Source: a virus. From it: a stretch of DNA of 64,000 nt. A model generated the notes under the pieces. It did not search any database. It saw only the letters and a program-made list of their open reading frames with translations, and was not told the origin of the DNA. Below are positions 6,077 through 58,653 of this stretch, one piece after another (within the stretch, counting starts at the first letter, position 1; every line of letters begins with the position of its first letter). The position numbers and the translations under genes are program-made. The stretch lies in the IMG/VR virus record IMGVR_UViG_3300031669_000003, positions 1 through 64,000 of that record. One strand, written 5' to 3'.

Positions 6077-6330
6077 GGGCCGGTGCAGGAGGCGCCTCCC
6101 ACATATCGAAATTCCTGAAGCAGCGCAAAGAGTGGCTCTCCGGCAGAAAAGATCCTCCCATCCATCCGAAGAGCAAGAAACTCTGGGACGTTCTCAGGAA
6201 ACCCTCCTTCGTCACGCCTCATATGATCAGGAGGATCGGCGGTGGGGCTGCGCTCGGTTACATTACCGCAGCGAGTCTCCCAGGAATCGCCAGGCGCCTT
6301 CGTGTGCTTCTCAAGAAGGACCGTAAATGA
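5782..6330 (+). CDS. Hypothetical protein with glycine-rich membrane-like segment, overlapping the lysine-rich gene
   Basis: 182 residues from ATG 5782, preceded by AGGAAGGGG. The start (F-G-E-S-F-L-D-E-I-L-P-I-F) resembles the D-E-L-x-K-I N-termini of the genes at 4658 and 5235. Residues 30-85 are an Glu/Gly/Ser-rich stretch that is the out-of-frame reading of the lysine repeats of the 5516 gene. The last 95 residues look like a genuine domain: a hydrophobic Gly/Ala segment (L-L-A-I-L-G-S-A-I-G-A-G-A), a basic helix, and a second Gly-rich hydrophobic stretch. ATGA overlap with the RNA polymerase start supports translation of this frame. Confidence 0.55.
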   Translation: MDARLTSRFGESFLDEILPIFEKEGGGEEGRGSSDHRVRSCGFEAEACQEEDTSQEKEGSSQEESPGETEGSGQEKVARKKEKGGSSETLLAILGSAIGAGAGGASHISKFLKQRKEWLSGRKDPPIHPKSKKLWDVLRKPSFVTPHMIRRIGGGAALGYITAASLPGIARRLRVLLKKDRK

Positions 6331-9300: not shown

Positions 9301-12300
9301 GTGACCTTCTATTGTGCCTCTGGGAAGGACTGCATAGGGGAGATGGATCAATAAGCAAGTCTGGCTCTGAGATCTACTATACATCGAGCCGTCAACTCGC
9401 GGATCAGGTTCAAGAATTGGCTTTGAAGGTCGGCTGGTCTGGAAATATCTACACCAGATTCGAGGCTGGATGGGAGACGATCATTAAAGGGAAGAAGACT
9501 AAAGCCAACTTTGATGGTCTTGTGGTTCGGATCGTGAAATCGAAGAACCAACCCATGATCAACCACGGGCACGCACGGACGCAGAACGGACAGGTGGAGG
9601 AATTGCGGCGATATTGTGGTCCGGTCCACTGTGTCACGGTTCCAGGCCACATACTATATACGAGGAGAAATGGAAAGCCGGTCTGGTGCGGTAATTCCAA
9701 TAGGGCAGGCGGCAAGGGCATCATCGTGAATATCCTTCCGGACAACGAGATGCTCAGGGATGAGTCGGGACAACCTCTCGACGTCCTGTTCAATCCCGGA
9801 GGCGTTGCCGGTCGAGTTAACCCGGGCCAGATCTTCGAGGGTGCAGCCGGAAAGGTGGCGCTGAAGACGGGCAAGCAGTACCTCGTCGACAACTTCTCGG
9901 AGCAGTCGTCCCTGGAGATGGTCAAGAAAAATCTCAAAGACGCCGGTATGAGCGACCTCGAGAGCGTCACAGATCCCACGTCCAATAATACGGTCAAGGA
10001 CGTGTTCGTCGGGAACGTGCATTTCGTGAAGTTGCAGCACCAGGTGAGTAAGAAGTTCTCGGCTCGGGGGATCGGAGGATACACGGCCGATGAGCAGCCC
10101 TCTAAGGTCAGCGGTGAGTCGGCACAGAACATCGGTTCAGGAGAGATCTATGCTCTACTGGCGTCAGGATCTCTTCATTTTTTGAAGGATGCTGCGACCC
10201 TGAAGTCGCAGTCGAATCCTGAATACTGGAGAGCCATGCAACTCGGGCTTCCCACTCCTCCTCCGAAACAACCTTTCATTCTCGACAAGTTCATCACGAG
10301 TCTCGAGGGCGCAGGGATCAACATGAAGCGGGAAGGAAACTCGCTGAAGGTCCTTCCCATGACGGACAAGGAAACTGAGTCGAGATCGAAGGGAGAGATC
10401 AAGAGTCCGGATGTCGTGAGAGCCTCGGACCTTCGTCCGGAACGAGGGGGTCTGTTCGACAAGGCCGTGACGGGAGGTATAGGCGGGACATCATGGTCCC
10501 ACATCGATCTCGAGACGCCGGTCCCTAACCCTCTCATGGAGAAGTCGGTGATCTCTGTTCTGGGCCTCAAGCCGGCCGAGTACAGGGCAATCATGGCTGG
10601 GAATCTGTTCGTGACCCAGGACGGAAAATTCACAGCGGATCACCAGAAGGGACAGCCTGCCGGCGTCGGTCTGAAAATCCTTCTGGACAATGTGAACGTG
10701 AACCGAGAGCTCGAGAAGACCATCGTCGCCATTCGTGTGGCCAGGGGTGCGCGTCTCAACGAACTAAACCTCCGTAGACGCTATCTTCAGGCACTCAAGG
10801 CCTCTAAGATGACGCCGTCCGAGGCGTACATTCAGTCGAAAATCCCGGTCATTCCTCCGGCGTTCCGGCCGATCTATCCTCTTCCTGACGGGTCGCTGAA
10901 CGTGGCCGATCCGAACCATAGCTACCGCGAGATCCTCATGATCAACAACCAGCTGAAGGATCTCGCAGCCAAAGGAGTAGACAACAAGAACCTGGCACCA
11001 ATCCGTGCGGATCTATTCGCAGCGGTCCAGGGTATGACCGGGATGATGGAGCCCCTTACCAGATCGAAGAACTTCAGGGGATTCGTGTCCACGATCAAGG
11101 GAAGGGTGAATAAGCGGGGCCTGTTCCAAGGTCGTGTGGTGAAGCGACCACAGGATCTGTCCGGCCGCTCCACCATCATCCCGGACCCACAGCTCGGAAT
11201 CGACGAGATGGGGATGCCCGCGGAGATGGGCCTTGTCATCTACAAACCGTTCATTGTGCGCCGACTCGTCGGTCTCGGGTACAAGCCGACCGAGGCCCTC
11301 GATCTCATCGACAAGAAAGACGAGAAGGCCCTCGAGGCACTCAGGCAGGAGGCGAAGGAGAGACCGGCCTATCTGAATCGAGCTCCCACGCTTCACAAAT
11401 TCGGCATCATGCCTTTCCATCCGAAGATCATGGAAGGGAAAGCGATCAGGATCAATCCGTTGATCGTCCGGGGGTACAACGCCGACTTTGACGGGGACGA
11501 TCAGATAGGCATAGTGTTATTGCACCTCGACCAGGAATCTCTTACCTTCGTAGAAGAGCAGTACGGTAAGAGATTCCTGGAGGACAGAGATGTGACGGCT
11601 CGTTACAAATGCTGCGTTCCGGCGTTTCAATCCGGGCGCTTGATCATGGTAGATCTCGCGGATTTCCCTGCCCTTCAGAAATTCAGAACTACTGAAGGGC
11701 GTAACGGCCCGATCGATTGGCATAAGATTCCGAAGGGCACCAGCGTAATCGCCTATAATGAGTCCTCTGGTTCGCTGAAGTGGGCCAGAGCCACGGTCTG
11801 GTCCAAACACTATGACCGGCTTGTCGAGATCGTCGAACTTCAGAGTGGGAGACAGATCATCACCGATGACGATCCTCGCGCTGTGTACGGTATAGTCGCA
11901 GGATCGCTCGATTTTGTGAGGGCAACTCCAAAGGAGGCGGTTGAGACAGGGATTTTCGTACCCAGAATGGCGACAGCGGAGGTGCCGGATCTTGAACCAG
12001 AGTACATTCCGGCCCGAAATATCAAAGGAGCCAGATTACACCTGAAGGAGCGCATCGATCTCACAGGAGATTTTGGATATTTACTCGGATCCTTGGCTGG
12101 GGATGGCTGGCCGGTTTTTGTCCATGATGATGCCCGCGGCGTATCACTCGCTGGGATAGCAGACGAGGTAGTGGCCCGATGTGACCGGGCGGTAGACTCG
12201 CTGTTCGATGGCGCGGCGCCTGAATGTAGCCCGGTGGATGGTAAGGAATCCTACGGCGAGAGTCGTCGAGTGACTTGGACTTCGGTCGAGCTTGGCTGGT

Positions 12301-14933
12301 TCATACACGGCCTGATCGGGAGGGGGGCGGAGAACAAGCATCTCCCTCCTTGGGTGTTCTCTTGTCGTAAGGAATTCAGATTTTCCGTGTTCGCCGGTCT
12401 CATGGATACGGACGGCGGAGTCGGAATTTCCAAGGCAAAGAAAAAGCCGCAACTCATGGCAAGCTATTCCTCTGTCAGTCTGCGGCTTGTAAGGGAGGTC
12501 AGGCTCCTCGCGGCTTCTTTGGGAATCGATAGCCGGATCACACCATCTAAGACCCCAGCCGGAGAGCCCTTTTGGGTGCTTAGTTTTTCAAATATCGGAA
12601 TCAAGGAATGGGGAGGATCTGGTTTACAAAATCCGGACAAGATCAGAAAGATCTCCGAGACACCTGTCGATCCAAATTCCAATGTGGCTGCCCGATTTGA
12701 TATCGTTCCGATCTCGTCCGGCCTTGCCCACGAGATCCGTAAGGTGATCAAGGCTCCAAGGGATGCTTCCAAGGAAAGGAAATCGATCTATGTTGTTCTT
12801 AGTAAGGCGATCACCGTTGGATCTATGAGTCGCCAGATAGCTGTAAAGATACTCAGCATGTTCAAGACGTTCGATCATCCAGATTACGAGAGGTGGAAGA
12901 CGATTGTTAGATCCGGCGTCAAGTGGGATCGAGTCGTTTCGTTTGAAAGAACCGGTATCAAGGAAACTGGGTATGACTTGACTGTTCCCGGGTTTGAGAC
13001 CTTTGTCTCGATCGATGGACTCGTTTTGTCGAACACCATGGGCGTTCACGTTCCTGTGAGCGAAGAGGCCAGGATCGAGGCCCTGTCGAAGATGCCGTCA
13101 AAGCAGCTCTTTTCCGTCACGGATGACTCGGTGATTCACACGCCGACCAAGGAATACGTCCTTGGTCTCTACCTCATGACGAAACCTATTGGGCCTAAGG
13201 TGACGGCCAAGAATGTTTCCGAGATGCTCGATCGGTTCAACAAGAAAGAGATCCTGGTGAACCAGACTGTGAGCATCCTCGGGAAGATCTGGACGCCTGG
13301 ACAGGCTCTCGTGAACGATGTGTTTCCTTCCGGGATGAGGCCCGGCAACGTCATTGTCAATAAGAGCAAGATGTCGGCCCTGATCGAGGAAGCTGCGAGG
13401 ACCTACCCTAAGGAGGCCGGGAGCGTCATCACGAAACTCAAGGACCTCGGTGCGTTCTACGTCACGGAGATTGGGTACTCGGTCGGTCTCAAGGATCTCG
13501 AATTCAATTACGTGAAGAGGGACAAGATTCTCGCGGATGCGGCCAAGAAGACGCCCAGAATAGGATTCGAGGCGGCCTACGGACAGGCCCTCGGTCGTCT
13601 CGACAATCAGGTGAAAGGAATGAAGGGGAATCGATTCGTTCTCGGGAACATCGAGTCGGGAGCCTTCGGTAAGGCCGACATGGTGACGCAGATGATCGCC
13701 ACACCGGTGGCGGTGCGTGATCATAAAAATGAACTCATTGAAGTTCCAATCGCCAAGAGCTTCGTAGAGGGGCACAGCATCACGTCATACTGGTCCACGA
13801 TTCCAGGCGCACGGAAGGGCCTCATCGAGAAGGGCCTCGGTACCGCCGAGACGGGAGCGCTGAGTAAGAGGCTCATCAACACGACGATCGAGCAGATCAT
13901 TTCGATTCAGGACTGTGGAACGCTCGAAGGCATCATGATGCCCATCGAATCGAGGGAAGCGGTCGACCGTGTGGTCTCCGACGGGCGAAACGCCGGCAAG
14001 ATATTGACTCAGTCCCTTGCCAGGCAGATGAAGGCCGCAGGGAAGTCACAGGTCAAGGTCAGATCTCCGTTAACTTGCCGCGCTCAGAGAGGAATCTGCG
14101 CGAAGTGTTTTGGTCTGCTCGAGAACGGTCAGTTCCCTCCCATCGGGTATCACGTAGGTGTCCTCGCGGGTCAGGCCATAAGCGAGCCTATGACCCAACT
14201 GATGCTTAAATCTTTTCATACCGGCGGTGCCATGAGCCGGAAGATGGTCGGTTTCGATCGGATCCGCCAGATCATGGAGATGCCCGAGAATGTTCCCGGG
14301 AAAGCTACGATCGCCATGACGACCGGGACCGTGGATAGCATCACTCAGGCTGCCGGTGGCGGCTGGATCGTGAAGATAGATGACGTGGATCACTTCATCC
14401 CGAAAGAGCGTGGACTGGGGGTTAAGCGCGGAGATAGAGTTCTCGCCGGTAAGACGATATCGAAGACCGGAGTCGTGAGGCCTCAGGATCTACTCTCGGC
14501 TACGAACGACATCAACGTGGTTCGTGGCCGTCTGATCAAGGACCTCGAAAATGAGTTCAGCCAGGGAGGCGTCAGGATCAAGCGTAAACTCTTCGAGACG
14601 GTAGTGAAGCCCATGACCGATAGGTCCGAGGTGCTTGATGCCGGGGATGGAGAGAAGCACGAGATCTTCAAGGGGGATATCATTCCGACGAATCTGATCG
14701 ATGAGACCAACAAGAAGATCAAACAGACCGGCGGCCGGCTGATCCAGTTCAAGCCGTCACTTCTGTCGATTAGGGTCGCCCCTTATCACAGCGGGGATTT
14801 CGTTGGTAAATTGATGTTCGAGCGTCCACATGAGACAATCTCTGCGGCGCCTCGGATAGGGGCCAAGTCGGATATCGCTACGGGTCATCCGATTACGCAG
14901 TATGTTTTCGGCCAGCTCGGAAAGAAGAAATGA
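6327..14933 (+). CDS. Fused multisubunit-type RNA polymerase beta-beta' chain carrying two inteins
   Basis: 2,868 residues; 2,001 after removing two inteins (769-1123, 1725-2236). Beta landmarks: Y-I-V-N-G-N-E-V near 101, H-P-S-Q-M-G-F and H-T-P-E-G-G near 365-385, G-K-N-L-R-T-A and Y-K-G-Q-N-F-E-D-G near 615-630, G-D-K-L|S-N-R at intein 1. Beta' landmarks: H-I-D-L-E-T-P-V near 1395, D-L-S-G-R-S near 1605, L-N-R-A-P-T-L-H-K near 1683, catalytic N-A-D-F-D-G-D at 1718-1724, a four-Cys zinc site (C2530, C2584, C2591, C2594) and trigger-loop region T-Q-L-M-L-K-S-F-H-T-G-G-A. The N-terminal beta' zinc finger is missing. ATGA couplings join it to both neighbours in the late cluster. It should catalyse DNA-templated RNA synthesis; alpha and omega were not found. 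Confidence 0.93.
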   Translation: MIDADLQFPEMMKRVERTIASAFPIESTGHIMELSNLEWKGFGNDVRDNITLHKDYKMKDKTLSTDLVGDITIRKKGGKVVDKKTGAVLLTLPHITNRASYIVNGNEVQTINQLRLRPGPYTRFTSDDNTETFINAAGGGYKIIFDRQTGVIRIKSGTTFVYIYPIMKALGVSDQAMQSAWGSVIFEANKKYDKREHVEKLFRTMRRFSAVPDNQVEVDQAVEDFFNSKRIDPKISKITLKKEFTSITPELLLDASRKAVDLAKGTAEMDDTESLAFKSIHSVEDFVPEKLERAVPSIRRQIQIKMDRIPVVETLISPRMFSNPVIDWFMTSEFTRYSDQQNPIDMAGTSQLTTTMGEGGIRSMHAVTDQVRTVHPSQMGFLDPLHTPEGGKIGVTGHLTIGAQKRGDSLFLTVLNARTGAQTQKSAQELEDATVAFNDQYVLDTGKPKPIASLIAARKAGKIQMVPSGEADFIFKDPRSFFSVASNAIPFLHNNSSNRGQMADRHIEQAVPLVNPDRPLVQARFKGDMGYDDYFGKYSNVAAPMAGTVTKVTDDLIRIKDQSDQTHDVRLHHNYPLNGGSFLTDRPVVVTGDRVTKGQVIAENNFTKDGSLALGKNLRTALIPYKGQNFEDGVVISQDAATKLTSEHKHEMRLDLTKDIKIGLDIWLAHYPDEVSKVNRGKYDTSGVIRKGSRIDRGDVLIPAVEQVQIHEEYDYARLHKALRRPWRNVAVTWESDYPGTVVDVVRTAKFIKVFIRTEEAAQVGDKLCYTPDHEVLTLSGWKPIAEVTLDDWVAVLDADGFLRYEQPYELHSYLIDENIYSLESQQVSLSVTTNHNLYVRKRGNKEHELIPAAECVGKRVRHKKDAKWDGSSVEKIVIPGYTVKCGQGGAATKMIEPSEFESRDFLRFLGFFIAEGNRCAPRRGSYRVSLSQNDGPNKVWIKRVLKRLGLGCSLPKGKVEFCHRGIWEWLDCVGDGAGNKHIPKLILGFSSDLLLCLWEGLHRGDGSISKSGSEIYYTSSRQLADQVQELALKVGWSGNIYTRFEAGWETIIKGKKTKANFDGLVVRIVKSKNQPMINHGHARTQNGQVEELRRYCGPVHCVTVPGHILYTRRNGKPVWCGNSNRAGGKGIIVNILPDNEMLRDESGQPLDVLFNPGGVAGRVNPGQIFEGAAGKVALKTGKQYLVDNFSEQSSLEMVKKNLKDAGMSDLESVTDPTSNNTVKDVFVGNVHFVKLQHQVSKKFSARGIGGYTADEQPSKVSGESAQNIGSGEIYALLASGSLHFLKDAATLKSQSNPEYWRAMQLGLPTPPPKQPFILDKFITSLEGAGINMKREGNSLKVLPMTDKETESRSKGEIKSPDVVRASDLRPERGGLFDKAVTGGIGGTSWSHIDLETPVPNPLMEKSVISVLGLKPAEYRAIMAGNLFVTQDGKFTADHQKGQPAGVGLKILLDNVNVNRELEKTIVAIRVARGARLNELNLRRRYLQALKASKMTPSEAYIQSKIPVIPPAFRPIYPLPDGSLNVADPNHSYREILMINNQLKDLAAKGVDNKNLAPIRADLFAAVQGMTGMMEPLTRSKNFRGFVSTIKGRVNKRGLFQGRVVKRPQDLSGRSTIIPDPQLGIDEMGMPAEMGLVIYKPFIVRRLVGLGYKPTEALDLIDKKDEKALEALRQEAKERPAYLNRAPTLHKFGIMPFHPKIMEGKAIRINPLIVRGYNADFDGDDQIGIVLLHLDQESLTFVEEQYGKRFLEDRDVTARYKCCVPAFQSGRLIMVDLADFPALQKFRTTEGRNGPIDWHKIPKGTSVIAYNESSGSLKWARATVWSKHYDRLVEIVELQSGRQIITDDDPRAVYGIVAGSLDFVRATPKEAVETGIFVPRMATAEVPDLEPEYIPARNIKGARLHLKERIDLTGDFGYLLGSLAGDGWPVFVHDDARGVSLAGIADEVVARCDRAVDSLFDGAAPECSPVDGKESYGESRRVTWTSVELGWFIHGLIGRGAENKHLPPWVFSCRKEFRFSVFAGLMDTDGGVGISKAKKKPQLMASYSSVSLRLVREVRLLAASLGIDSRITPSKTPAGEPFWVLSFSNIGIKEWGGSGLQNPDKIRKISETPVDPNSNVAARFDIVPISSGLAHEIRKVIKAPRDASKERKSIYVVLSKAITVGSMSRQIAVKILSMFKTFDHPDYERWKTIVRSGVKWDRVVSFERTGIKETGYDLTVPGFETFVSIDGLVLSNTMGVHVPVSEEARIEALSKMPSKQLFSVTDDSVIHTPTKEYVLGLYLMTKPIGPKVTAKNVSEMLDRFNKKEILVNQTVSILGKIWTPGQALVNDVFPSGMRPGNVIVNKSKMSALIEEAARTYPKEAGSVITKLKDLGAFYVTEIGYSVGLKDLEFNYVKRDKILADAAKKTPRIGFEAAYGQALGRLDNQVKGMKGNRFVLGNIESGAFGKADMVTQMIATPVAVRDHKNELIEVPIAKSFVEGHSITSYWSTIPGARKGLIEKGLGTAETGALSKRLINTTIEQIISIQDCGTLEGIMMPIESREAVDRVVSDGRNAGKILTQSLARQMKAAGKSQVKVRSPLTCRAQRGICAKCFGLLENGQFPPIGYHVGVLAGQAISEPMTQLMLKSFHTGGAMSRKMVGFDRIRQIMEMPENVPGKATIAMTTGTVDSITQAAGGGWIVKIDDVDHFIPKERGLGVKRGDRVLAGKTISKTGVVRPQDLLSATNDINVVRGRLIKDLENEFSQGGVRIKRKLFETVVKPMTDRSEVLDAGDGEKHEIFKGDIIPTNLIDETNKKIKQTGGRLIQFKPSLLSIRVAPYHSGDFVGKLMFERPHETISAAPRIGAKSDIATGHPITQYVFGQLGKKK
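8631..9695 (+). other. Intein 1 in RNA polymerase (beta conserved G-D-K-L site)
   Basis: 355 residues (769-1123 of the host protein). It starts with Cys (C-Y-T-P-D-H-E-V-L-T), has block B T-T-N-H, two LAGLIDADG-like helices (L-G-F-F-I-A-E-G and L-H-R-G-D-G) and ends in W-C-G-N followed by Ser as first C-extein residue. The penultimate His is replaced by Gly, which some active inteins tolerate. Joining gives G-D-K-L-S-N-R-A-G-G-K-G, matching the conserved beta segment, so the borders are well supported. Confidence 0.9.
11499..13034 (+). other. Intein 2 in RNA polymerase, inside the NADFDGD catalytic loop, with atypical termini
   Basis: 512 residues (1725-2236). Removing it joins N-A-D-F-D-G-D to T-M-G-V-H-V-P, exactly the conserved beta' sequence. 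Hint-like features: G-T-S-V-I-A-Y-N near 70 residues in, block-F-like G-Y-D-L-T-V-P, C-terminal V-L-S-N|T. LAGLIDADG-like motifs are L-A-G-D-G and L-M-D-T-D-G. It begins with Asp instead of Cys/Ser/Ala, block B reads T-D-D-D instead of T-x-x-H, and the penultimate residue is Ser instead of His. The nearest cysteines (a C-C pair) are 37-38 residues inside. The N-terminal border is inferred from the extein only. Confidence 0.8.
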
Positions 14934-18055: not shown

Positions 18056-19130
18056 CAAACTCAAGACGTTCACCAGAGCCGGACTTTTAGCGAAGTACGG
18101 GATCTCTTTTGACACTCTGGGCACGTTGCTCGGCTCTGATCTCCTCGATGGGGAGTTCGAGCATAAAGCGGGCAAGAGCCTGTTTGCGGTGTCTCCTCAG
18201 GATGATTTCGTTTTTCGCTGCTCCAGGCTTCAGGTTGACAGCTTCCACACTATCGGACTGACTTTCCCTTTCCACCGTTTTCTCGTCTACCGGTTCATCA
18301 ACACGCCCGTGGACGAAGTCTACGAGGAGATCTTCCAGCTCGGCCTGCTCCCGAAGATAGACGCCTTCACGAAGGACGAGATGAAGCGTCTCCATAAGAA
18401 GATCATCGGAGCCGCTCCGAGAGAACTGGCGAAGGCGTTCAAGGATCTGAGGGAACCGAAGAAGGACGAGAAGAAGAAATACGATCTCTTTCTGAAGACC
18501 TTGAACATCCAGTTGTACTATGACAAGCCGTCGCTCGTTGACGATCTAATGTTCTACATACCCATGCGGGCGGAGCTCGAGGTCATCCTTACGACGATCT
18601 GTACCGCGGAGGAGGCGACTGAGGCGCTCTCCAAAATGATCGACGTGTCGATCCCGCTCTCGGCTATCACCACCTACAGGATCCTTCTTTACGCTTCCCA
18701 TAACGTCAATCCGAGGCACATAGATATGTATTACAACCTGATCCTTCCGAGCGAGAGACTCGTAAAACGCGAGGCGATGGGTCTCACCCTCACTGAGTTC
18801 TGTGTCAAGAAGGGGGCCGATCGTGTGGTGGACACGAAGACTGTCCTTGAGGTCATCATGAGGCACGCCCAGAAGGAGGTCATGCGTCTCCATCAGATCA
18901 AGACCCCTGAAGGGCACCAGGCTGCCAGGGCCGCTCTCGATCGGCTCATCAAGGCTCACGACAGACTCGAGGCCATGGGCGCCACGAGCGAGGAGAGCCG
19001 CGAGAATCTGGCGAAGACGTTCAAGAAGTTCAGGATCAAGAAGGTCACGAACGCGGAGGCTGGACCCATTTTCACCATACACGACATCCAGAAGGACGGC
19101 GTCGGTGAGGTGGAGTCCGGTGGCAAATGA
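18039..19130 (+). CDS. Hypothetical helical protein upstream of terminase
   Basis: 363 residues; overlaps the previous gene by 17 bases, and its stop overlaps the terminase start (ATGA at 19127). The protein is mostly helical, basic, with an N-terminal segment that could be a helix-turn-helix (F-T-R-A-G-L-L-A-K-Y-G-I-S-F) and a Lys-rich C-terminus. Coupling to terL makes a small-terminase or packaging-adaptor role conceivable, but it is larger than usual small terminases and no family signature is seen. Confidence 0.6.
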   Translation: MVKRNSKLKTFTRAGLLAKYGISFDTLGTLLGSDLLDGEFEHKAGKSLFAVSPQDDFVFRCSRLQVDSFHTIGLTFPFHRFLVYRFINTPVDEVYEEIFQLGLLPKIDAFTKDEMKRLHKKIIGAAPRELAKAFKDLREPKKDEKKKYDLFLKTLNIQLYYDKPSLVDDLMFYIPMRAELEVILTTICTAEEATEALSKMIDVSIPLSAITTYRILLYASHNVNPRHIDMYYNLILPSERLVKREAMGLTLTEFCVKKGADRVVDTKTVLEVIMRHAQKEVMRLHQIKTPEGHQAARAALDRLIKAHDRLEAMGATSEESRENLAKTFKKFRIKKVTNAEAGPIFTIHDIQKDGVGEVESGGK

Positions 19131-20395
19131 GTTTTCAAGTCAAATATCATGATCCGTCGACGACGGGTGTCAGGTTCAGGCCTAACAAATACTCCCTGCT
19201 TCCGGAGGCGGCTTCGCTCATCGGATGCGGTCTTGTGGATGTGGACGAGGATGCGATTGACGAAGTCACCCAAGAGACGATGGAGAGCGACGATTCCCAG
19301 ATCGAAGGATGGATCTCCAATTTCGCTGAAGCTCTCGTCACCGTAAATCGAGAGCCTCTCTCCCTCAAGGATCGCGACTACCTTCGTATGATCTACGATG
19401 TCAGGAGCGAGTACCCGAACGGATCGAGGAACACGGTGATCGTTTCCGGCCGACAGGTCGAGAAATCGACCACCATTGCCGCGAAGGTTATGACCTTGTG
19501 CATCCTCCACCCGTCGTTCTCGGCTCTGGTAGTCGAGCCCCGGGTAGATCAGATCAAGGTCATCAGCCAGCAGCGCTTCGACCCGATGGCCCATGATTCC
19601 AAGCCCCTTCGCCAGGGATGGCTCTCAAGCAAAAACGTCTGGCAGGTAGGAATGAAGGGGTTCAACAACGGGTCCATCGTGAACTTCAAGTCCTGTTATT
19701 ACTCTGCCGACCCCTCCCGTGGGATCACGGCCGGATTCCTCGCAATCGACGAGTTGCAGGACATCATCTCGGACAACATTCCGATCCTCGAGGAGTGCCA
19801 GTCCCACCTTCAGATGGAGCCGGACCGCGTCTTCAATCTCTATACCGGGACCCCGAAGACGACATCAAACACGCTCAACCAGCACTGGAGGGATACCTGC
19901 CAATTCGAGTGGCTCGTCAAGTGCCAGTCGTGCACCAACTATAACTACCTCGACGAGAAGGTCATCGGAAAGCACTTCTACATCTGCACTCGATGCGGGA
20001 GGCAGATTTACCCGACTAAGCACGGGCAGTGGATTGCCATGAAGCCGAGCAAGCTCGACTACAGATGGGGGTTCAGGATCTCCCAGCTGATGGTCCCGTT
20101 CATGGAGCACGCTAAGATCCTGGAGAAAATGGAGAATCCGAACATTCCTCATCGGGTATTCATGAATGAGGTGGTGGGACTCTCCTACGACGAGGGACAG
20201 CTGCTCCTGACGGAAGCCGATATATTGAAGCACTGTGAGCCCAGGCCCCAGGATACGCCCCAGAACATTGCACAGAGGACCGATATATTCATGTGCGCCG
20301 GGGTCGATCATGGGACCGGCGACTATGCCGTTTCCGGCATGGACGACGGCGGAACCCGTGGGATGAAGGCTCGGGCCAAGCCGTCGTTCACGTGA
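19127..20395 (+). CDS. terL: Large terminase, ATPase part (reading stops at an internal UGA)
   Basis: 422 residues. The ATPase domain shows a Walker A-like V-S-G-R-Q-V-E-K-S-T-T near residue 107-115 (Glu where Gly is usual), Walker B F-L-A-I-D-E-L near 205, and a coupling-type Y-T-G-T-P segment. A zinc-ribbon-like insert follows (C-Q-S-C ... C-T-R-C). The nuclease domain begins at C-A-G-V-D-H-G-T-G-D-Y, giving the first catalytic Asp, and then the frame stops at TGA 20393-20395. The same frame stays open to 20956 and holds the rest of the nuclease, so this product alone would lack nuclease activity. Confidence 0.85.
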   Translation: MSFQVKYHDPSTTGVRFRPNKYSLLPEAASLIGCGLVDVDEDAIDEVTQETMESDDSQIEGWISNFAEALVTVNREPLSLKDRDYLRMIYDVRSEYPNGSRNTVIVSGRQVEKSTTIAAKVMTLCILHPSFSALVVEPRVDQIKVISQQRFDPMAHDSKPLRQGWLSSKNVWQVGMKGFNNGSIVNFKSCYYSADPSRGITAGFLAIDELQDIISDNIPILEECQSHLQMEPDRVFNLYTGTPKTTSNTLNQHWRDTCQFEWLVKCQSCTNYNYLDEKVIGKHFYICTRCGRQIYPTKHGQWIAMKPSKLDYRWGFRISQLMVPFMEHAKILEKMENPNIPHRVFMNEVVGLSYDEGQLLLTEADILKHCEPRPQDTPQNIAQRTDIFMCAGVDHGTGDYAVSGMDDGGTRGMKARAKPSFT

Positions 20396-20956
20396 CTGGC
20401 TTTCGGCGGTTTTGGAGCCGACGATCGGTTCCGAATTCTCAAGATGGAAAAGTTCCATGGTGAGATGGCCAACCTGGCACGTCAGCCGGAGTATATCGAC
20501 GAATACGTCAGGAAGTACGGCGCTAAGTGGGTGATGTCAGACTACGGGTTCGGCGCCCACACGAACGCCAGACTCGTTGCGGATCACGGGTGGACACGGT
20601 CTGATGTCGAGGGAACGAGGGATCCCCTCCTGATGGAATGCGAATACTCTGGGATACAGAAGGTTCCGATCAGATGGCACAGCGGAGCCTGGAGATATAT
20701 TATCAATCGTAACTTTGCCATCGAGCATACGGTTGACGGGATCAAAAGGGGGACGATCTGGTTCTTTCGTGAAGCCGAAATGAAGGAATTCATTGACGAC
20801 TTCACCTCCATGTATACCGAGTACGACTTCAGGAGCAAGCACGTAAGATACGACCACGTTCTCCCGGATGACTGTTTCCAGGCGGTTCTATACTGCTATC
20901 TGGCCGCCTTGCAGCATCGTGGGATGCTCGTCCCCACAATGGTTCCGAACATTTGA
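20396..20956 (+). CDS. terL: Large terminase, C-terminal nuclease part, in frame after the UGA
   Basis: The frame of terL continues after TGA with L-A-F-G-G-F-G-A-D-D-R-F-R-I-L, which reads as the second strand of the RNase H fold, then W-V-M-S-D-Y-G-F-G with the second catalytic Asp, and Y-D-H-V-L-P-D-D-C-F-Q-A with the third. If translated alone, the first good ATG is 20444, which would lose strand two. The natural reading is one protein with Trp or another residue at the UGA (TGG to TGA is one change). Sequencing error, inactivating mutation and readthrough are all possible. Confidence 0.7.
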   Translation: MAFGGFGADDRFRILKMEKFHGEMANLARQPEYIDEYVRKYGAKWVMSDYGFGAHTNARLVADHGWTRSDVEGTRDPLLMECEYSGIQKVPIRWHSGAWRYIINRNFAIEHTVDGIKRGTIWFFREAEMKEFIDDFTSMYTEYDFRSKHVRYDHVLPDDCFQAVLYCYLAALQHRGMLVPTMVPNI

Positions 20957-25880: not shown

Positions 25881-28800
25881 ATGTTCGTAGATGCTTCAGG
25901 ATTGGCGATCACGCCCCTCGGCATGGACACGCCGGAATGGGGTCCGAACATGATCCACCTGCATCCGCGCACGATGGAGAAGATCGCTTCCGAACTCTTC
26001 GTTCCCGAGCGTCTCGTCGAGTTCATGGAATCGATTCGTCCGAGGGAGGACGGTCGATACATCCTTCTACATGCCATCGGTGCCGGAGAATACTGGGGTT
26101 GCTTTCTTCCTGGATCACTCGTTCAAAGGGCAGACGGACGGTATGTTCCGATCGAGGACGTTAAGAAGGGGGATCGGGTTCTCAGTCGTAGCGGGCACTT
26201 CCGCGAGGTCCTTGCCGTCTGGAAGCATGGCCGCCATCGTGAGGGTGTCAGCATTTCGGTGGAGGGCCTTGTTGATGACATCAAAACTACGCCGAATCAC
26301 GAATTTCTCGGCCTTCCTTTTGATGAGATTGTCTGTGACAGGGATCGTACCGGGCGGTGTATTCCAGAGACCAGCGGCACGCAGAATATATGCAAGAGGA
26401 CCCAGTCCGCAGCCTGCGTTTTAGCGCCGAAGACGCATACAGGGCGTTGGGTGGCGGCCGAGGCGCTGGCTCTCAAGGACTTCCTTCTCTGTGCCATTCC
26501 TGATCATGACGAGCCTCCTATTTTCACGGAGGATGAGGCCCGCGCTATTGGTCTGTGGGTGGCAGATGGTAATTTCATCGGTAATGTTTTGGAGTTCTCT
26601 GTCGCCGACTCCGAGATATATCTCGTCGAGGACATCGAGAAACTCACAAAGGCCAAGACCTACGACGGGCACGGTGCCTGCAAATCGGTTCGAGTTAATC
26701 GCCCCGATCTCGCGCCCAAGATTAAGGCCCTCTTCGGAGAATATTCTCACGGGAAGCGAATTCCCGGCACATTCTGTAGGCAGCCTGAGGAGGTCGTGCT
26801 CGCCTTTCTTTCTGGCTACTTTGACGGTGACGGTTCACAGAACCTGAAAGACAGTACGACCTATGCCCACACTGTCTCGAAGGATTTGGCCCTTGGGGTT
26901 CAGAGGCTTCTCTGGTCCGTCAAGATACCGGCGACCGTGTGCATGACACCTGGTGGGTTCCACGTCAACTTCTCGCTGGATCGAGGACGTCGACTCACCG
27001 AACGATGCCGGAAATTCTCTGATCACACCCCGAAGGGGCGCCCGAGTTATCGGCAGTTCTTTATCGACGGGTACGTGTGTCTCCCGATCAGGAAACTGGA
27101 GAGGTTTCAGATTGACGGCCCAGTCTACGATCTGGAGGTCGAGGAGGAGCACGCCTATAACGTCGGCCAAGTGGTCTGTCACAATAGCAATAAGAACGGT
27201 GACTACTTCCCGGAGTGGAGTCTCAAGGGCCTCCAGATGCCGGACGAGGTGAAGGTCTACGTCCGGGATCGAGGTCTTCCTGTTCCCCAGGAATACGGCT
27301 ATAGGACCTTCGAGTTCTACGGCTGGCCTTACAGGTATCACAACAACTCCGACCCGATCCATACCATCGGCGAGCGCGTTTGCTGCTCGGCCTACAACGA
27401 TCGCATGCATCGGATCGAGTTGATAATTTTCGTTCGGAAGGATCTGGCTCCGGATCTCGTGAATAGGATTGACGCCGGTGTGCAGGTTCCCTGGTCCATG
27501 GGATCGAAGCTCCCCTTCGACGTTTGTCTGCCGGCTGGATCTCCCGTGCATGGTCCAGAGGGTGTGGAGCGGATTGAGGACGTTCAGGAGGGTGATCTGG
27601 TCTTTACGAAGGAAGGCCGGGTTCGTCCGGTCACTAAGACCTTCAAGAGGCTATTCTCCGGGACTCTGGTGACCCTCGACGTGAAGGGGCTTCCCGAAAC
27701 GCTTACACTGACCGGAAACCATCCGATCTTTATCTTCCGAAAGGAACAGATCAGGCAGCCAGGCGGTCGGAGATTGGATGAAAGGGCTAAAGAGGCTGAA
27801 GGTCAGTTCGTGAACTCCGAGGATGTGAAGCCCGGAGATTACGTCTTCGTGCCTAAGATCAGGCCGGACGATACGGAGTTCGAGGCTATCGACCCTGTAT
27901 TCTCCCGGTTGTGCGGCTACTACCTCGGCGACGGTCACATCATCACCCAGCGTCGTGGTGAGAAAAAGGATGGTCCCAGAGATTTCACAGGTGTTTCCAT
28001 CTCCTGTGGGACCGATGACGAGGAGCATCTGAATAGAGTGGTGAACACCCTTGAAGATCTCTCCGAATCCAAGGTTCACGTCTATTCAGCGGGAGAAGAC
28101 AGAGCCGCCGTTGCTGTGGTGTGCCACGACAAGATTCTTGCCGCGAGGGTTGCGGCTATGTGTGGCCGTAAGAAAGAGAAGCGACTTCCTCCCGAAATCT
28201 TCTATAGCGCAACGGAATCGCGGTTGGCTCTTCTCGGTGGTTTGATGGACTCAGATGGAAGTATTGATCAGAAGAAGAGTTCATCGAGAATCACGATCAC
28301 TCTTCTGGATCTTATGCGCCAAACGCAGATGCTTGCGTTGTCTGTTGGGATACCGGCTACTCTTTCTTTCGTGAAAAGCAAAGGAAACGCGTATCGCGGG
28401 GCCGATACAATCGTAGGGCAGGCGCATCTCGGCGCGACTGCGACTCAGATTTTGGCCCCGTACTCGATCAAGTGCGGAAGGGCTGAGCCGAGAGCGCGGT
28501 GGGGCGCAACGGCGGTCGAGCGAGAGGATGGTTTCCTCTTCCCAGTGAAAACCGTGATCCATGAGGAGGTCGAGCAAGAACCGGTCTTCAACCTTTCCGT
28601 GGAAGAGGATGAGACCTACTTGATCGGCCCGGCAGTCCATAACTGCTCTGTTTGCATGAATCCGGCCAAGACCCGGCAGCAGTATTGCTTCGTCTCCGGA
28701 ACCCTGATCACGCTCGCCAACGGTTCCGTCAAACCGATCGAAGAAATTCGTGTTGGCGACTCGGTACTGGGGGCCGAGGGTCTTCCTACGACAGTCACCC

Positions 28801-30749
28801 ATCTGTTCCAGCGAGAAGTAGACGAGGAGATCGTCGAGATCCGCCATAGCGTTAGCCAAGAGATCCTGCGCTGCACGAAGGAGCACCCGATCCTTTCCTC
28901 TCCGAGGGAGGCTTTCTCCTGCTACTACCATCGGTACGGCAGAGAAGTCCGAAGCTGCTTCCCTGGGGCGTTCGAGGAGTGTTCGTCCTGTCGTAGTCCC
29001 GAGGAGACTCCCGATTTTGTGAAGGCACGAGATCTCCGGATTGGGGATTCCGTGTACTCTCCCGGTGTTCTACAGGAAACTCCATCAGATCTTATCGAGA
29101 CCGATGCCTACATGATTGGCCTTTTCATGGCCGAGGGCAGCTTCGCCAAGGCCGGTGATCGATTCCGCTCTGCCCAGTTTTCCATCCATGAAGATGAGTC
29201 GCACCTCATCGAGAAGATTGCCGCCTTCGGCGAAAAGTTCAACCACACGGCCAAGGTATATGGTCGGGCCGGGAGTCAGGGCATCAGTGTCCGAGTCCAC
29301 TCCCATGATGCTGCTGCCTTCCTTCACGGGCATACCGGAGAGTATGCCCATTCAAAATTCGCCTCTGACCAGGTCGTCTTCTCTCCTCCGCAGATCGTCG
29401 CCCAGTATCTGGGCGGTCTATGGGATGGAGACGGCCATGTTCAGTCCCGGTCCGGAAGACAGCCCGTGTCCCGACTGAATACGGCATCGAGATCTCTGGC
29501 GTGGCAGACGTCGGCGCTGCTCCGGAAGGTGGGACACCCGGCGTATCTTGGGCGTGCCCGCGTTCCTGGAGGCCCCACAACCAGGACGAACAAGTTTGAC
29601 CAGTGGTACGTCACCACCGACTTTCTCAGGTCGACGTCCTTGTCCAGGTCCGCAATCCGCCGTGGGATCGAAATCGGCTCGATCCGGGAGATAGGGCGAT
29701 CCCGCTATAGGGGGCCTGTTTTCAACTTCGAGACGGAAAACAACACCTATGTGGCCGGCGGTATCGCCGTCCATAATTGCAACCACTTGAAGAACATGCT
29801 GAATAGGATTCTTCCTGATGGGACGAAAGTTTTCTCCTTCAACTATTTCCCCAGGTTCTTCGATATCAGCGAGGTGACAGTCCCCGCGGATCGCAGCGCC
29901 TACTCGTTGAAGAAGGTGGCGGAGTTCATGGAATCCGGACAGGCCAGTCCGATCTGGGTTCCAGGGACGGATTACGTGTCCATCGGTCCCACCCATGAAG
30001 AGTTCAGAAGGGTTATCGAAACCGAGATGGAAAAGATCGCTGAGCGGCCGAGATTCACTCTGGAGGAGCAGGCTCACTTCGACGAAATGATCGAGATCAT
30101 GTCGAATGGCGGCGAAAAGGAAGCGGACATCGACAAAGAGGTTCCTGCCCAGGAACCCGGGAAGAATCTCGGATCCGAACCCGTGAGCAAGGATCTATGG
30201 CAGTTCGTTTACGACCTGGCCAAGAAGGACCGTGAGATGGTTCAGGAGATGCCGTCGTCGATGCGAGGTGCTCTCAGGAACCAGCCGATCGACAAGGTGC
30301 TCCAGGCCCTAACGGCAACTGGAATCCAGATGACCCCTGATGAGTCCGAGGACATCATAGGGGATCGTGAACTACCAGACGAACTTGACACTTCCTGTCC
30401 GGATCCTACACTACTCAAGAGGATTTCAGGTATCGTTCCGGGAAGATCGATGTTCGAACCTCGATTCTCGGTACGGGTGATCCAGATCTCGAGAGTTGGA
30501 GATGAAGAGTCGGATCTCCCGAAATTTCTTGTGAAAAGGGCGAACGGGATCTATGATCAATACATCAAGTGGCTCCGTTCAATCGAGTTGGAGAAGCTGG
30601 CAGAACTTGTCGCTCATCCTCCTGTTCAACTGCTCCTTAGCCCGGACGTTCTAAAAGACAAAATGTTCGAGTTCGAGGAGGAAAAGACAGGATGCTCCTT
30701 GGAAGAGGAATTCCTGCCTTTCGTTGCGGGAGCGGCCCTTGAGGATTGA
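25881..30749 (+). CDS. Prohead protease-like head protein carrying three inteins
   Basis: 1,622 residues; 523 after removing inteins at 74-435, 549-921 and 936-1299. The joined core reads E-Y-W-G|S-N-K-N-G-D-Y-F-P, then a R-Y-H-N-N-S-D-P segment with a candidate catalytic His, a V-P-W-S-M-G-S segment with a candidate Ser, a four-Cys cluster (D-V-C-S-V-C, Q-Q-Y-C), and F-F-D-I-S-E-V-T-V-P-A-D-R-S. This order resembles phage head-maturation protease-like proteins (S78-type His/Ser), and the gene lies upstream of decoration and capsid genes. A C-terminal acidic/helical region of about 300 residues follows. Protease function is inferred from motifs and position. Confidence 0.65.
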   Translation: MFVDASGLAITPLGMDTPEWGPNMIHLHPRTMEKIASELFVPERLVEFMESIRPREDGRYILLHAIGAGEYWGCFLPGSLVQRADGRYVPIEDVKKGDRVLSRSGHFREVLAVWKHGRHREGVSISVEGLVDDIKTTPNHEFLGLPFDEIVCDRDRTGRCIPETSGTQNICKRTQSAACVLAPKTHTGRWVAAEALALKDFLLCAIPDHDEPPIFTEDEARAIGLWVADGNFIGNVLEFSVADSEIYLVEDIEKLTKAKTYDGHGACKSVRVNRPDLAPKIKALFGEYSHGKRIPGTFCRQPEEVVLAFLSGYFDGDGSQNLKDSTTYAHTVSKDLALGVQRLLWSVKIPATVCMTPGGFHVNFSLDRGRRLTERCRKFSDHTPKGRPSYRQFFIDGYVCLPIRKLERFQIDGPVYDLEVEEEHAYNVGQVVCHNSNKNGDYFPEWSLKGLQMPDEVKVYVRDRGLPVPQEYGYRTFEFYGWPYRYHNNSDPIHTIGERVCCSAYNDRMHRIELIIFVRKDLAPDLVNRIDAGVQVPWSMGSKLPFDVCLPAGSPVHGPEGVERIEDVQEGDLVFTKEGRVRPVTKTFKRLFSGTLVTLDVKGLPETLTLTGNHPIFIFRKEQIRQPGGRRLDERAKEAEGQFVNSEDVKPGDYVFVPKIRPDDTEFEAIDPVFSRLCGYYLGDGHIITQRRGEKKDGPRDFTGVSISCGTDDEEHLNRVVNTLEDLSESKVHVYSAGEDRAAVAVVCHDKILAARVAAMCGRKKEKRLPPEIFYSATESRLALLGGLMDSDGSIDQKKSSSRITITLLDLMRQTQMLALSVGIPATLSFVKSKGNAYRGADTIVGQAHLGATATQILAPYSIKCGRAEPRARWGATAVEREDGFLFPVKTVIHEEVEQEPVFNLSVEEDETYLIGPAVHNCSVCMNPAKTRQQYCFVSGTLITLANGSVKPIEEIRVGDSVLGAEGLPTTVTHLFQREVDEEIVEIRHSVSQEILRCTKEHPILSSPREAFSCYYHRYGREVRSCFPGAFEECSSCRSPEETPDFVKARDLRIGDSVYSPGVLQETPSDLIETDAYMIGLFMAEGSFAKAGDRFRSAQFSIHEDESHLIEKIAAFGEKFNHTAKVYGRAGSQGISVRVHSHDAAAFLHGHTGEYAHSKFASDQVVFSPPQIVAQYLGGLWDGDGHVQSRSGRQPVSRLNTASRSLAWQTSALLRKVGHPAYLGRARVPGGPTTRTNKFDQWYVTTDFLRSTSLSRSAIRRGIEIGSIREIGRSRYRGPVFNFETENNTYVAGGIAVHNCNHLKNMLNRILPDGTKVFSFNYFPRFFDISEVTVPADRSAYSLKKVAEFMESGQASPIWVPGTDYVSIGPTHEEFRRVIETEMEKIAERPRFTLEEQAHFDEMIEIMSNGGEKEADIDKEVPAQEPGKNLGSEPVSKDLWQFVYDLAKKDREMVQEMPSSMRGALRNQPIDKVLQALTATGIQMTPDESEDIIGDRELPDELDTSCPDPTLLKRISGIVPGRSMFEPRFSVRVIQISRVGDEESDLPKFLVKRANGIYDQYIKWLRSIELEKLAELVAHPPVQLLLSPDVLKDKMFEFEEEKTGCSLEEEFLPFVAGAALED
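26100..27185 (+). other. Intein A in the protease-like head gene
   Basis: 362 residues (74-435). Starts C-F-L-P-G-S-L-V, block B T-P-N-H, LAGLIDADG-like motifs V-A-D-G and Y-F-D-G-D-G, block F V-Y-D-L-E-V-E, ends V-C-H-N with Ser as first C-extein residue. All key splicing residues are present, so it should be an active splicing and homing element. Removal restores G-E-Y-W-G-S-N-K-N-G-D-Y. Confidence 0.92.
27525..28643 (+). other. Intein B in the protease-like head gene
   Basis: 373 residues (549-921). Starts C-L-P-A-G-S-P-V, block B T-G-N-H, LAGLIDADG-like motifs Y-Y-L-G-D-G and L-M-D-S-D-G, block F V-F-N-L-S-V-E, ends A-V-H-N followed by Cys. Canonical residues are complete. Only 14 extein residues separate it from intein C. 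Confidence 0.92.
28686..29777 (+). other. Intein C in the protease-like head gene
   Basis: 364 residues (936-1299). Starts C-F-V-S-G-T-L-I, block B T-K-E-H, LAGLIDADG-like motifs F-M-A-E-G and L-W-D-G-D-G, block F V-F-N-F-E-T-E, ends A-V-H-N followed by Cys. A small Cys-rich patch (Y-Y-H ... C-F-P ... E-C-S-S-C) lies after block B. Key splicing residues are complete. Confidence 0.92.
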
Positions 30750-33154: not shown

Positions 33155-34339
33155 ATGGACTTCACTCCCGAGAGGTTCAACGCTCTCTTCGGTGAGGCCG
33201 TCCGCAGGGGAGGTGAGTACCTCGAGAAGGTCGCCGACGCCGGGGATCTCTACGTGCAGAAGAAGCTCCGCGAGAACTCCTTCGCCCGGAAGATCATCCA
33301 GCCGAAGACCGTCACCGAGCGCGAGTGCCAGCGGTCCCTCACCGAGGACTCCCTCGAGTACGTGGACGACATCGAGCCGGATTCGATCGCCATGCACATC
33401 AACTGGAGAGGGGAGCCGGAGAAGTCGTGGATCATGGGAAAGCGTTACGCGATCCCGTTCCACACCATCTCCTCCGACATCTTCCAGAAGACGGAATCCG
33501 AGCTCCGGGCGTACCGGATGCCCATCACCAAGATCATCGAGCAGAACATCATCAGGGACATCCAGGAGCAGGAGGACGTGACGTTCATGCAGCACGTCCT
33601 CGCTGCGCTGTTCTTGGCCACCCGTGCCCGCTACAACACTCTCGTGCGGCGCGGCGTCCTTTCCACCTCCAGGAACTTCGCCAACGAGACCGAGTTGGCG
33701 TGCTTCCTCTTCACCCAGAACAAGGCCTACCAGGCATCGCCTTGGGCTGCGGCCATCCCCACTTCGGCCCTCAACCGGGCCAAGGGTTTCCACAGCAACA
33801 TCCTGTTCTCGGACCAGTCCGAGTTCAATCGGATCGTGCTGCGTGACCTGAGCCAGGTCTGCTCCGCCCGCGAGCTCGAGCTCAAGACCTTCCTCATGCA
33901 CAAGTACGACTTCGACGCGACCATCGCGTGGTCGCTGAACGAGGCCGGCCTCGAGATCACCAGCGAGATCGTGCGGGACGGATTCAAGTACACCACGATC
34001 GGCGGTTTCACCTACGTGACGACCGTCCGCGACAACCAGCAGCTGGTGCAGCCCGGCCAGATCTTCGGTTTCCCGTCGCCCCAGTTCCTCGGGAAGTTCC
34101 TCATCCTCGACAACACCAAGTTCTTCATCAACCGGCGCGGCCGGTTCATCGAGATGGAGGCTTGGGAGGAGATCGGCGCAGGCTTCGGGAACATCTACGG
34201 CGTCTGCTGCATCATCCTTAAGGGGGCCGAGATGACCATCCCGGTCGCTTTCCAGAACCCGTCCGATGTGGTCGGCGTCACGGGATCGCTCCGGATCATC
34301 AACGACCATACGCTCACCTCGATCCCGGCTCCGGTGTAG
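33155..34339 (+). CDS. Major capsid protein (HK97-like)
   Basis: 394 residues with AAGGAGA before ATG 33155. Features match HK97-fold phage capsid proteins: an N-terminal helical arm, S-F-A-R-K-I-I-Q-P (arm region), a long spine helix in the middle (Q-N-I-I-R-D-I-Q-E-Q-E-D-V), and a beta-rich end (F-G-F-P-S-P-Q-F-L-G-K-F and V-P-I-like M-T-I-P-V-A-F-Q-N-P). Nearly all codons end in C or G, more than in neighbouring genes, and a strong terminator follows, both fitting the most highly expressed gene. Confidence 0.8.
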   Translation: MDFTPERFNALFGEAVRRGGEYLEKVADAGDLYVQKKLRENSFARKIIQPKTVTERECQRSLTEDSLEYVDDIEPDSIAMHINWRGEPEKSWIMGKRYAIPFHTISSDIFQKTESELRAYRMPITKIIEQNIIRDIQEQEDVTFMQHVLAALFLATRARYNTLVRRGVLSTSRNFANETELACFLFTQNKAYQASPWAAAIPTSALNRAKGFHSNILFSDQSEFNRIVLRDLSQVCSARELELKTFLMHKYDFDATIAWSLNEAGLEITSEIVRDGFKYTTIGGFTYVTTVRDNQQLVQPGQIFGFPSPQFLGKFLILDNTKFFINRRGRFIEMEAWEEIGAGFGNIYGVCCIILKGAEMTIPVAFQNPSDVVGVTGSLRIINDHTLTSIPAPV

Positions 34340-57910: not shown

Positions 57911-58653
57911 CTGCCAGGTCCCAGAAGAGCAAAGATGGGAGTCCTGATGAACTTCCCCTTCTTTTCCGGATGGAGCCACGTATCGAACGTAGTGCACCAT
58001 TCGCGGAGTACGTCGAGGTGAGTCTTCTCGTTAGTCACGATCTCGCGCTTAGCATCTGCGAGCATGTTCTCAATGTCGGCCAGGTTGATTAACCCATCCA
58101 AGATGGGATCACGTTCCACGATCTCCCACAAACTATCTGACCTATTGTTGGAGACATTCTTGTGGTCGCAGGTACGTTCAGTCCTTCTCAAAAACTGGCA
58201 TTCCACCGGCTTGTTATCGAGCAGGCATCCGTGATCCGCCAGGAACGGGCACGGAATTCCGACCTTCGCCCAGTCGTATTGAAAGACGTTGGGATCGAAG
58301 GGGTTGAAGTTACGAACTCCAGCAGCACGGCACTGATGCTGCCAGACCTGGTACACACCTTTGGACTGTTCGATCGCGTGAATCTTCGCCGGATAGTTCC
58401 TGAACATCTCCCTCGACAGATATTCCAACTCGATGCGACTCGTGATGATCGGGATCCGGTAACAGCAGTCCGAGCATCCTGGAGGGCAAGGGAACTTAGG
58501 GAATCTGCGGCTGAGCAGGTTCCTGACCTCCTTGAGCACGGATCTGAATGCCTTAATCTTCGTGCCGAAGCCGACCTTGTTGTTTCCTATGGTGTTGAGG
58601 TGCTTCTGCACCTTGGATTTCAGGGCATCGAAGAACGGGACCTCGTTTTTCAC
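57907..58653 (-). CDS. YkgJ-type Cys-cluster protein
   Basis: 248 residues. A Cys-rich motif C-P-P-G-C-S-D-C-C (56-64), then P-C-P-F-L-A-D-H-G-C-L-L and V-E-C-Q-F-L, gives the pattern of the YkgJ zinc/iron-binding family. The biochemical role of that family is not well settled. It overlaps the helicase start by 4 bases. Confidence 0.7.
   Translation of the reverse strand: MKNEVPFFDALKSKVQKHLNTIGNNKVGFGTKIKAFRSVLKEVRNLLSRRFPKFPCPPGCSDCCYRIPIITSRIELEYLSREMFRNYPAKIHAIEQSKGVYQVWQHQCRAAGVRNFNPFDPNVFQYDWAKVGIPCPFLADHGCLLDNKPVECQFLRRTERTCDHKNVSNNRSDSLWEIVERDPILDGLINLADIENMLADAKREIVTNEKTHLDVLREWCTTFDTWLHPEKKGKFIRTPIFALLGPGR

What the first reader, a model, noticed from the sequence alone, without database searches (positions are those of the whole stretch)
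25881..30749. Three inteins in one head-protease-like gene, two only 14 residues apart
1,099 of 1,622 codons are intein. Extein pieces are 73, 113, 14 and 323 residues. The sites surround the conserved motif blocks, including the Cys cluster D-V-C...Q-Q-Y-C. Three inteins in one phage structural gene is rare, and a 14-residue extein between two inteins tests how splicing proceeds.
Basis: partly seen in the sequence, partly recalled or inferred. Interest (0 to 1): 0.8.

Follow-up and report, generated by a model that had tools for sequence, protein, structure and literature searches.

The report
Phage head protease carrying three inteins
A phage gene for the protease that matures the virus head is interrupted by three self-splicing mobile protein elements (inteins), two of them only 14 amino acids apart, and this protease family turns out to be an intein hot spot with at least five insertion sites around its active site.

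Summary
ORF 25881-30749 (1622 aa) holds three full-length inteins (362, 373, 364 aa) between extein pieces of 73, 113, 14 and 323 residues. Each has Hint-type and LAGLIDADG homing-endonuclease parts and canonical splice residues. Intein-free homologues run straight through all three junctions. An unmodified homologue folds like T4 gp21 prohead protease, and the gene lies between terminase and major capsid, so 'head protease' holds. In IMG/VR relatives the same sites are filled separately: a only (L163, nearest relative), b only (L109), a+b (L092), c only (L130, L122). Two further sites lie directly after the presumed catalytic His (d) and Ser (e). Inteins group largely by site; about nine in ten close relatives have none. 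The site-c intein is closer to that of a distant phage (51%) than the exteins are (38%), which points to lateral transfer. Best reading: three separate homing events into one essential, conserved gene. I saw no other triple allele. Splicing was not tested. Three inteins in one gene are known in archaea; in a phage head protease, with a 14-residue spacer, I found no report. New member of a known kind; interest 0.5.

The parts
25881..30749 (+). Precursor ORF, 1622 aa: prohead protease with three inteins
25881..26099 (+). Extein piece 1, 73 residues
   Evidence: aligned with intein-free homologues
26100..27185 (+). Intein a (362 aa), site 73|74 before SNKNGDYF; Cys1, ends HN, +1 Ser; LAGLIDADG
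   Evidence: allele 70.7% identical in L163, also L092
27186..27524 (+). Extein piece 2, 113 residues; contains the NxNGD motif and the presumed catalytic His and Ser
27189..27203 (+). NKNGD motif (extein residues 75-79), next to site a
   Evidence: conserved in 53 homologues
27339..27341 (+). His125 (extein numbering), presumed catalytic; site d of relatives follows it
   Evidence: invariant; site d in L091 and L140; catalytic role inferred
27495..27497 (+). Ser177 (extein numbering), presumed catalytic Ser of WSMG; site e of relatives follows SMG
   Evidence: invariant; site e in L106, L100, L104; catalytic role inferred
27525..28643 (+). Intein b (373 aa), site 186|187; Cys1, ends HN, +1 Cys; LAGLIDADG
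   Evidence: fold Z 30 to whole solved inteins; alleles in L109 (59%), L092 (38%)
28644..28685 (+). Extein piece 3, 14 residues CSVCMNPAKTRQQY, 42 bp between inteins b and c; holds the first two Cys of the C-C-C-H cluster
28686..29777 (+). Intein c (364 aa), site 200|201; Cys1, ends HN, +1 Cys; LAGLIDADG
   Evidence: allele 51% identical in L130
29778..30746 (+). Extein piece 4, 323 residues; begins with the third Cys and the His of the cluster (CNH)
19127..20956 (+). Context: terminase large subunit upstream
   Evidence: phrog_675 E 3.6e-44
33155..34339 (+). Context: major capsid protein downstream
   Evidence: phrog_2522 E 1.2e-5; NF042927 E 2e-6

Best explanation
The gene encodes the prohead (head maturation) serine protease of a tailed phage. 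Three class 1, LAGLIDADG-containing inteins have invaded it one by one, each at its own fixed point. After translation each intein most likely removes itself by the standard route: acyl shift at Cys1, transfer to the +1 residue (Ser for a, Cys for b and c), Asn cyclisation aided by the penultimate His, and a final acyl shift. This restores the 523-residue protease and its Cys3His cluster, probably a zinc site. As DNA, each intein's endonuclease most likely cuts the matching intein-free gene of a co-infecting phage and is copied in. The gene is a favoured target because it is essential and its active-site motifs change little. Shown here: the anatomy, intact splice and nuclease motifs, empty sites in relatives, separate occupancy of the same sites elsewhere, signs of purifying selection on splicing and nuclease parts, and lateral transfer of the site-c intein. 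Inferred: that splicing and DNA cleavage happen, their order, and the zinc site.
For: Canonical ends and block residues in all three; LAGLIDADG and Hint matches; fold of b; gap-free empty sites; same sites filled separately: a in L163, b in L109, a+b in L092, c in L130 and L122; inteins group by site (5 label changes, shuffled mean 11.0) whereas occupancy of a, b, c needs 8, 5, 4 changes on the extein tree; intein c 51% identical to L130's although extein cores are 38%; pN/pS 0.27, 0.37, 0.52 for the nearest a, b, c pairs, 0.29, 0.33, 0.48 in their nuclease parts; protease identity.
Against: No splicing, cleavage or homing was measured. Synonymous sites are near saturation, so selection is only roughly estimated. 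Hint matches of a and b are below Pfam cut-offs. No other allele with all three inteins was found. The extein tree is the quick version.
Confidence: 0.87

Rival explanations
1. Conditional splicing: the inteins have become a timer. The protease cannot form its active site or metal cluster until three splicing steps are done, so splicing gates head maturation, perhaps by sensing zinc or redox state at the Cys-rich junctions.
For: All five known sites lie at the NxNGD motif, the presumed catalytic His and Ser, or the Cys cluster. Zinc is reported to inhibit splicing of a mycobacterial DnaB intein (title and abstract of PMC7360933).
Against: About nine in ten close relatives have no intein, the nearest relative lacks b and c, and occupancy comes and goes on the extein tree, so the phages do not need them. 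Preference for conserved sites is general for inteins (PMC2814812).
Confidence: 0.06
2. Decaying elements: one or more inteins no longer splice, so the gene is a broken protease.
For: No activity was tested.
Against: Frame open over 1622 codons, all catalytic splice residues and both LAGLIDADG acidic residues present by inspection, pN/pS well below 1 in splicing and nuclease parts, extein core conserved.
Confidence: 0.04
3. Assembly artefact: the three-intein gene is a chimera of alleles that each carry fewer inteins.
For: The record is a metagenome assembly and no second triple allele was seen.
Against: G+C and GC3 are even across all pieces; no other contig holds inteins close enough to have supplied b or c (best identities 59% and 51%); an independent double allele exists (L092).
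Confidence: 0.03

Closest known systems
Haloarchaeal MCM helicase inteins, sites a-d (PMC10643990)
   Same: Four LAGLIDADG intein sites close together in one conserved gene; alleles with one or two filled; frequent lateral transfer.
   Different: Archaeal replicative helicase, not a phage head gene; mostly one or two sites filled; there homing was measured and the inteins hindered each other.
Haloquadratum walsbyi polB with three large inteins (cited in PMC10643990)
   Same: Three endonuclease-bearing inteins in one gene.
   Different: Archaeal DNA polymerase; spacing not compared here.
crAss-like phage TerL with two inteins; up to three inteins per genome (PMC7886860)
   Same: Several inteins in one phage head/packaging gene.
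   Different: Hint-Hop type, terminase, two in one gene; the window's record has six inteins in three genes.
Terminase inteins of cluster J mycobacteriophages (PMC3706429)
   Same: Intein in an essential late phage gene, with an intein-free relative (Courthouse) and different intein types in different phages.
   Different: One intein per gene, reported there with HNH endonucleases; terminase, not protease.
T4 gp21 prohead protease and relatives (Gordonia phages Pupper and Stormageddon, Bacillus phage G gp19)
   Same: Fold, gene order and, for the phage G and Gordonia proteins, sequence of the host protein.
   Different: No inteins; the Cys cluster is shared by the phage G and Gordonia proteins and was not checked in T4.

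Membership tests
Class 1 intein (each of a, b, c) | Nucleophile Cys1, block-B TxxH, penultimate His, terminal Asn, +1 Cys/Ser/Thr | tested here: met
   C..TPNH..HN|S (a), C..TGNH..HN|C (b), C..TKEH..HN|C (c) by reading the translation
Class 1 intein (each of a, b, c) | Hint splicing fold | tested here: met
   b: whole-intein superposition Z 30; c: Hom_end_hint above cut-off, TIGR01445 and TIGR01443; a: Intein_splicing E 4.7e-6 below cut-off, and 71% identical allele in L163
Class 1 intein (each of a, b, c) | Removal restores a gap-free host protein | tested here: met
Class 1 intein (each of a, b, c) | Autocatalytic splicing | not testable with these tools
   needs expression
Homing (LAGLIDADG) intein | Two LAGLIDADG motifs with acidic residues | tested here: met
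   LAGLIDADG_3 above cut-off in all three; acidic pairs D/D, D/D, E/D by inspection
Homing (LAGLIDADG) intein | Same-site occupancy in distant lineages out of step with the extein tree | tested here: met
Homing (LAGLIDADG) intein | Cleavage of the empty site | not testable with these tools
   needs purified protein and DNA
Phage prohead / herpesvirus-type assembly protease (host protein) | Protease fold | tested here: met
   homologue L012: T4 gp21 Z 9.9, VZV protease Z 9.3; BFVD prohead proteases
Phage prohead / herpesvirus-type assembly protease (host protein) | Catalytic His and Ser | tested here: inconclusive
   H125 and S177 invariant in 53 sequences, but not superposed residue by residue on gp21
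Phage prohead / herpesvirus-type assembly protease (host protein) | Gene order between portal/terminase and major capsid | tested here: met
Phage prohead / herpesvirus-type assembly protease (host protein) | Cleavage of scaffold or capsid proteins | not testable with these tools
   needs experiment
Bacterial intein-like (BIL) or Hedgehog Hint domain | Lies in variable protein region, lacks LAGLIDADG part | tested here: not met
   conserved protease core; LAGLIDADG present

The most novel reading that the evidence does not exclude
The prohead protease of these phages is held inactive by inteins at its active site and metal cluster, and the removal of three inteins, sensing zinc or redox state, times head maturation.
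Probability: 0.06. Interest if true: 0.85.

Novelty: new member of a known kind. Interest (0 to 1): 0.5.

Why it matters
It adds a host gene class, phage head maturation proteases, with five insertion sites, to the known intein hot spots. It is a natural triple-intein precursor with a 14-residue middle extein, in which splicing order and cross-talk can be measured. Sites b and c lie 42 bp apart and are each found filled alone as well as together, so they suit a test of whether neighbouring homing endonucleases help or hinder each other, the question raised by the MCM work (PMC10643990).

Tried and rejected
Close-relative scans with the joined extein alone and with intein c alone found nothing; profile and junction-pattern scans were needed. 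The cellular genome scan found no relative. A joint model of b-E3-c was dropped because MAFFT laid the site-c inteins of relatives on intein b. PDB search by sequence with the extein and Foldseek in PDB gave no significant match; the second look did. BIL/Hedgehog-type Hint domains rejected: LAGLIDADG parts, HN|C/S ends, conserved empty sites. Introns rejected: continuous frame, no Rfam match. Pattern scans cover only the codons and spacings written into them, so occupancy counts are lower bounds; 14 of the 80 loci were not parsed.

Full report
Observation. The ORF at 25881-30749 is open over 1622 codons. Three inteins can be cut out at aa 74-435, 549-921 and 936-1299, leaving extein pieces of 73, 113, 14 and 323 residues; 1,099 residues are intein. 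I call the sites a, b and c. Each element starts with Cys and ends with His-Asn before Ser (a) or Cys (b, c). All three have LAGLIDADG_3 above Pfam's cut-off and Hint-type matches, of which only c's is above a cut-off. NCBIfam's intein end models hit c. The PDB chains hit by sequence are mostly intein endonucleases: PI-PkoII for a and b, PI-SceI and others for c. A model of intein b with its own flanks (unchanged window sequence, mean pLDDT 82) matches whole solved inteins with Z 30, aligned from Cys1 to the +1 Cys.

Host protein. The joined extein has no Pfam family and only weak PHROG matches, among them a head maturation protease. By tblastn it matches a structural protein of Salmonella phage Arash, a protein of Vibrio phage D181, gp19 of Bacillus phage G and, weakly, capsid maturation proteases of Gordonia phages. 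In phage G and the Gordonia phages the gene lies between portal and major capsid. The window's gene lies between terminase and the major capsid gene. To avoid folding an edited protein I folded an uninterrupted natural homologue, L012, with 52 relatives. Its core (about residues 41-240) mostly has pLDDT above 90, and its best solved matches are T4 gp21 (Z 9.9, 129 residues, 2.8 A) and varicella-zoster protease (Z 9.3). BFVD gives phage G gp19 and many prohead proteases. His125 and Ser177 are invariant in 53 sequences, as are Cys187, Cys190 and Cys201, with His203 nearly so. The Cys3His cluster looks like a zinc site; that is inference.

Where the inteins sit. In extein numbering, a is 73|74, just before the NxNGD motif; b is 186|187, directly before the first cluster Cys and nine residues after the presumed catalytic Ser; c is 200|201, directly before the third. 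Homologues run straight through all three points. Two further sites appear in relatives: d at 125|126, directly after the presumed catalytic His (L091, L140), and e at 179|180, directly after SMG/SMA (L098/L106, L100, L104). Local conservation at the five sites exceeds random junctions of the domain (p 0.02), but the three window sites alone do not (p 0.17).

Occupancy elsewhere. Pattern and profile scans of IMG/VR found site a filled in 16 contigs by one pattern (some near-identical), and in L163 and L205. Site b is filled in L092, L107, L108 and L109, and site c in L122, L125, L130, L134 and L140. L092 has a+b; the window is the only a+b+c allele seen. Of 66 parsed genes among the 80 nearest to extein piece 2, five carry an intein at a or b: L163, L164 (= L109), L178 (= L092), L205 and L213 (= L108). 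The nearest relative, L163 on a 125-kb contig, has only a; its intein a is 70.7% identical to the window's, like the extein core (71.5%). L109 has only b (59%; extein core 66%). L011 and L012 have none.

Trees. Inteins group mostly by site: 5 label changes, shuffled mean 11.0. On the extein tree (quick version) the filled state of a, b and c needs 8, 5 and 4 changes. L106 (a+e) and L122 (c) have nearly the same extein core. The site-c inteins of the window and L130 are sisters with full support and 51% identical, whereas their extein cores are 38% identical and in different supported clades. Hence intein c moved between distant phages. pN/pS of 0.27, 0.37 and 0.52 for the closest a, b and c pairs, and 0.29-0.48 in the nuclease parts, suggest that splicing and nuclease functions are or were recently selected; pS is close to saturation, so these are rough.

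Mechanism. Most likely these are three ordinary class 1 inteins that splice independently, spread by endonuclease-driven homing. Alleles with a single filled site exist for all three sites, so the triple allele can arise step by step. This agrees with the MCM study, where invasion of alleles already filled at one site worked better than co-invasion (PMC10643990). With 42 bp between b and c, filling one leaves 42 bp of native sequence beside the other, enough for a typical half-site of a LAGLIDADG enzyme (own knowledge), so each can probably still be cut. Sites e and b, 21 bp apart, were not seen filled together. A timer role for the inteins is possible but not needed, and the sporadic occupancy speaks against it.

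Novelty. Three inteins in one gene are known in archaea, for example H. walsbyi polB (PMC10643990). [quoted passage not shown] Searches for inteins with prohead or capsid maturation protease gave no report of this host gene, in a library that lacks most subscription journals. The window's record has six inteins in three genes; its nearest relative lacks the RpoB intein and has PolA and RpoC inteins that differ. I therefore rate it a new member of a known kind, with unusual density.

Noticed in passing
window 6327-14933 (+): One 2868-aa ORF holds a fused RpoB-RpoC RNA polymerase homologue with two inteins: one in the RpoB part (8631-9695), absent from the nearest relative.
   Followed up: partly
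window 11499-13034 (+): The second polymerase intein (about 512 aa) splits the catalytic NADFDGD|TMGVHVP motif. Its first residue after NADFDGD is Asp, not Cys or Ser, and block B reads TDDDPR, so it is non-canonical. The relative L248 has a Cys-starting intein close by, and its motif reads NMDFNGD.
   Followed up: partly
window 61371-62351 (-): Family A DNA polymerase gene (60663-63935) has an intein at NLNFGL|CYG. The relative L250 is empty there (NLNFGLMYG) although its record has a LAGLIDADG match in the same 1130-aa ORF, so another site is filled.
   Followed up: partly
window 20393-20395 (+): The terminase large subunit gene (19127-20956) is interrupted by one in-frame TGA; the relative's gene (L249) is intact. 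Assembly error, readthrough or a broken gene are all possible.
   Followed up: partly
L225, protease ORF of 1114 aa; L224, 977 aa: Two relatives of the protease have long C-terminal extensions or insertions without intein motifs.
   Followed up: no
L091 site a: The site-a intein of L091 is only 264 aa, much shorter than its alleles, so its endonuclease part may be decaying.
   Followed up: no
window 56363-58000 (-): Helicase-like ORF (ResIII/DEAD) with a weak PbeA defence-model match; most likely just a phage helicase.
   Followed up: no
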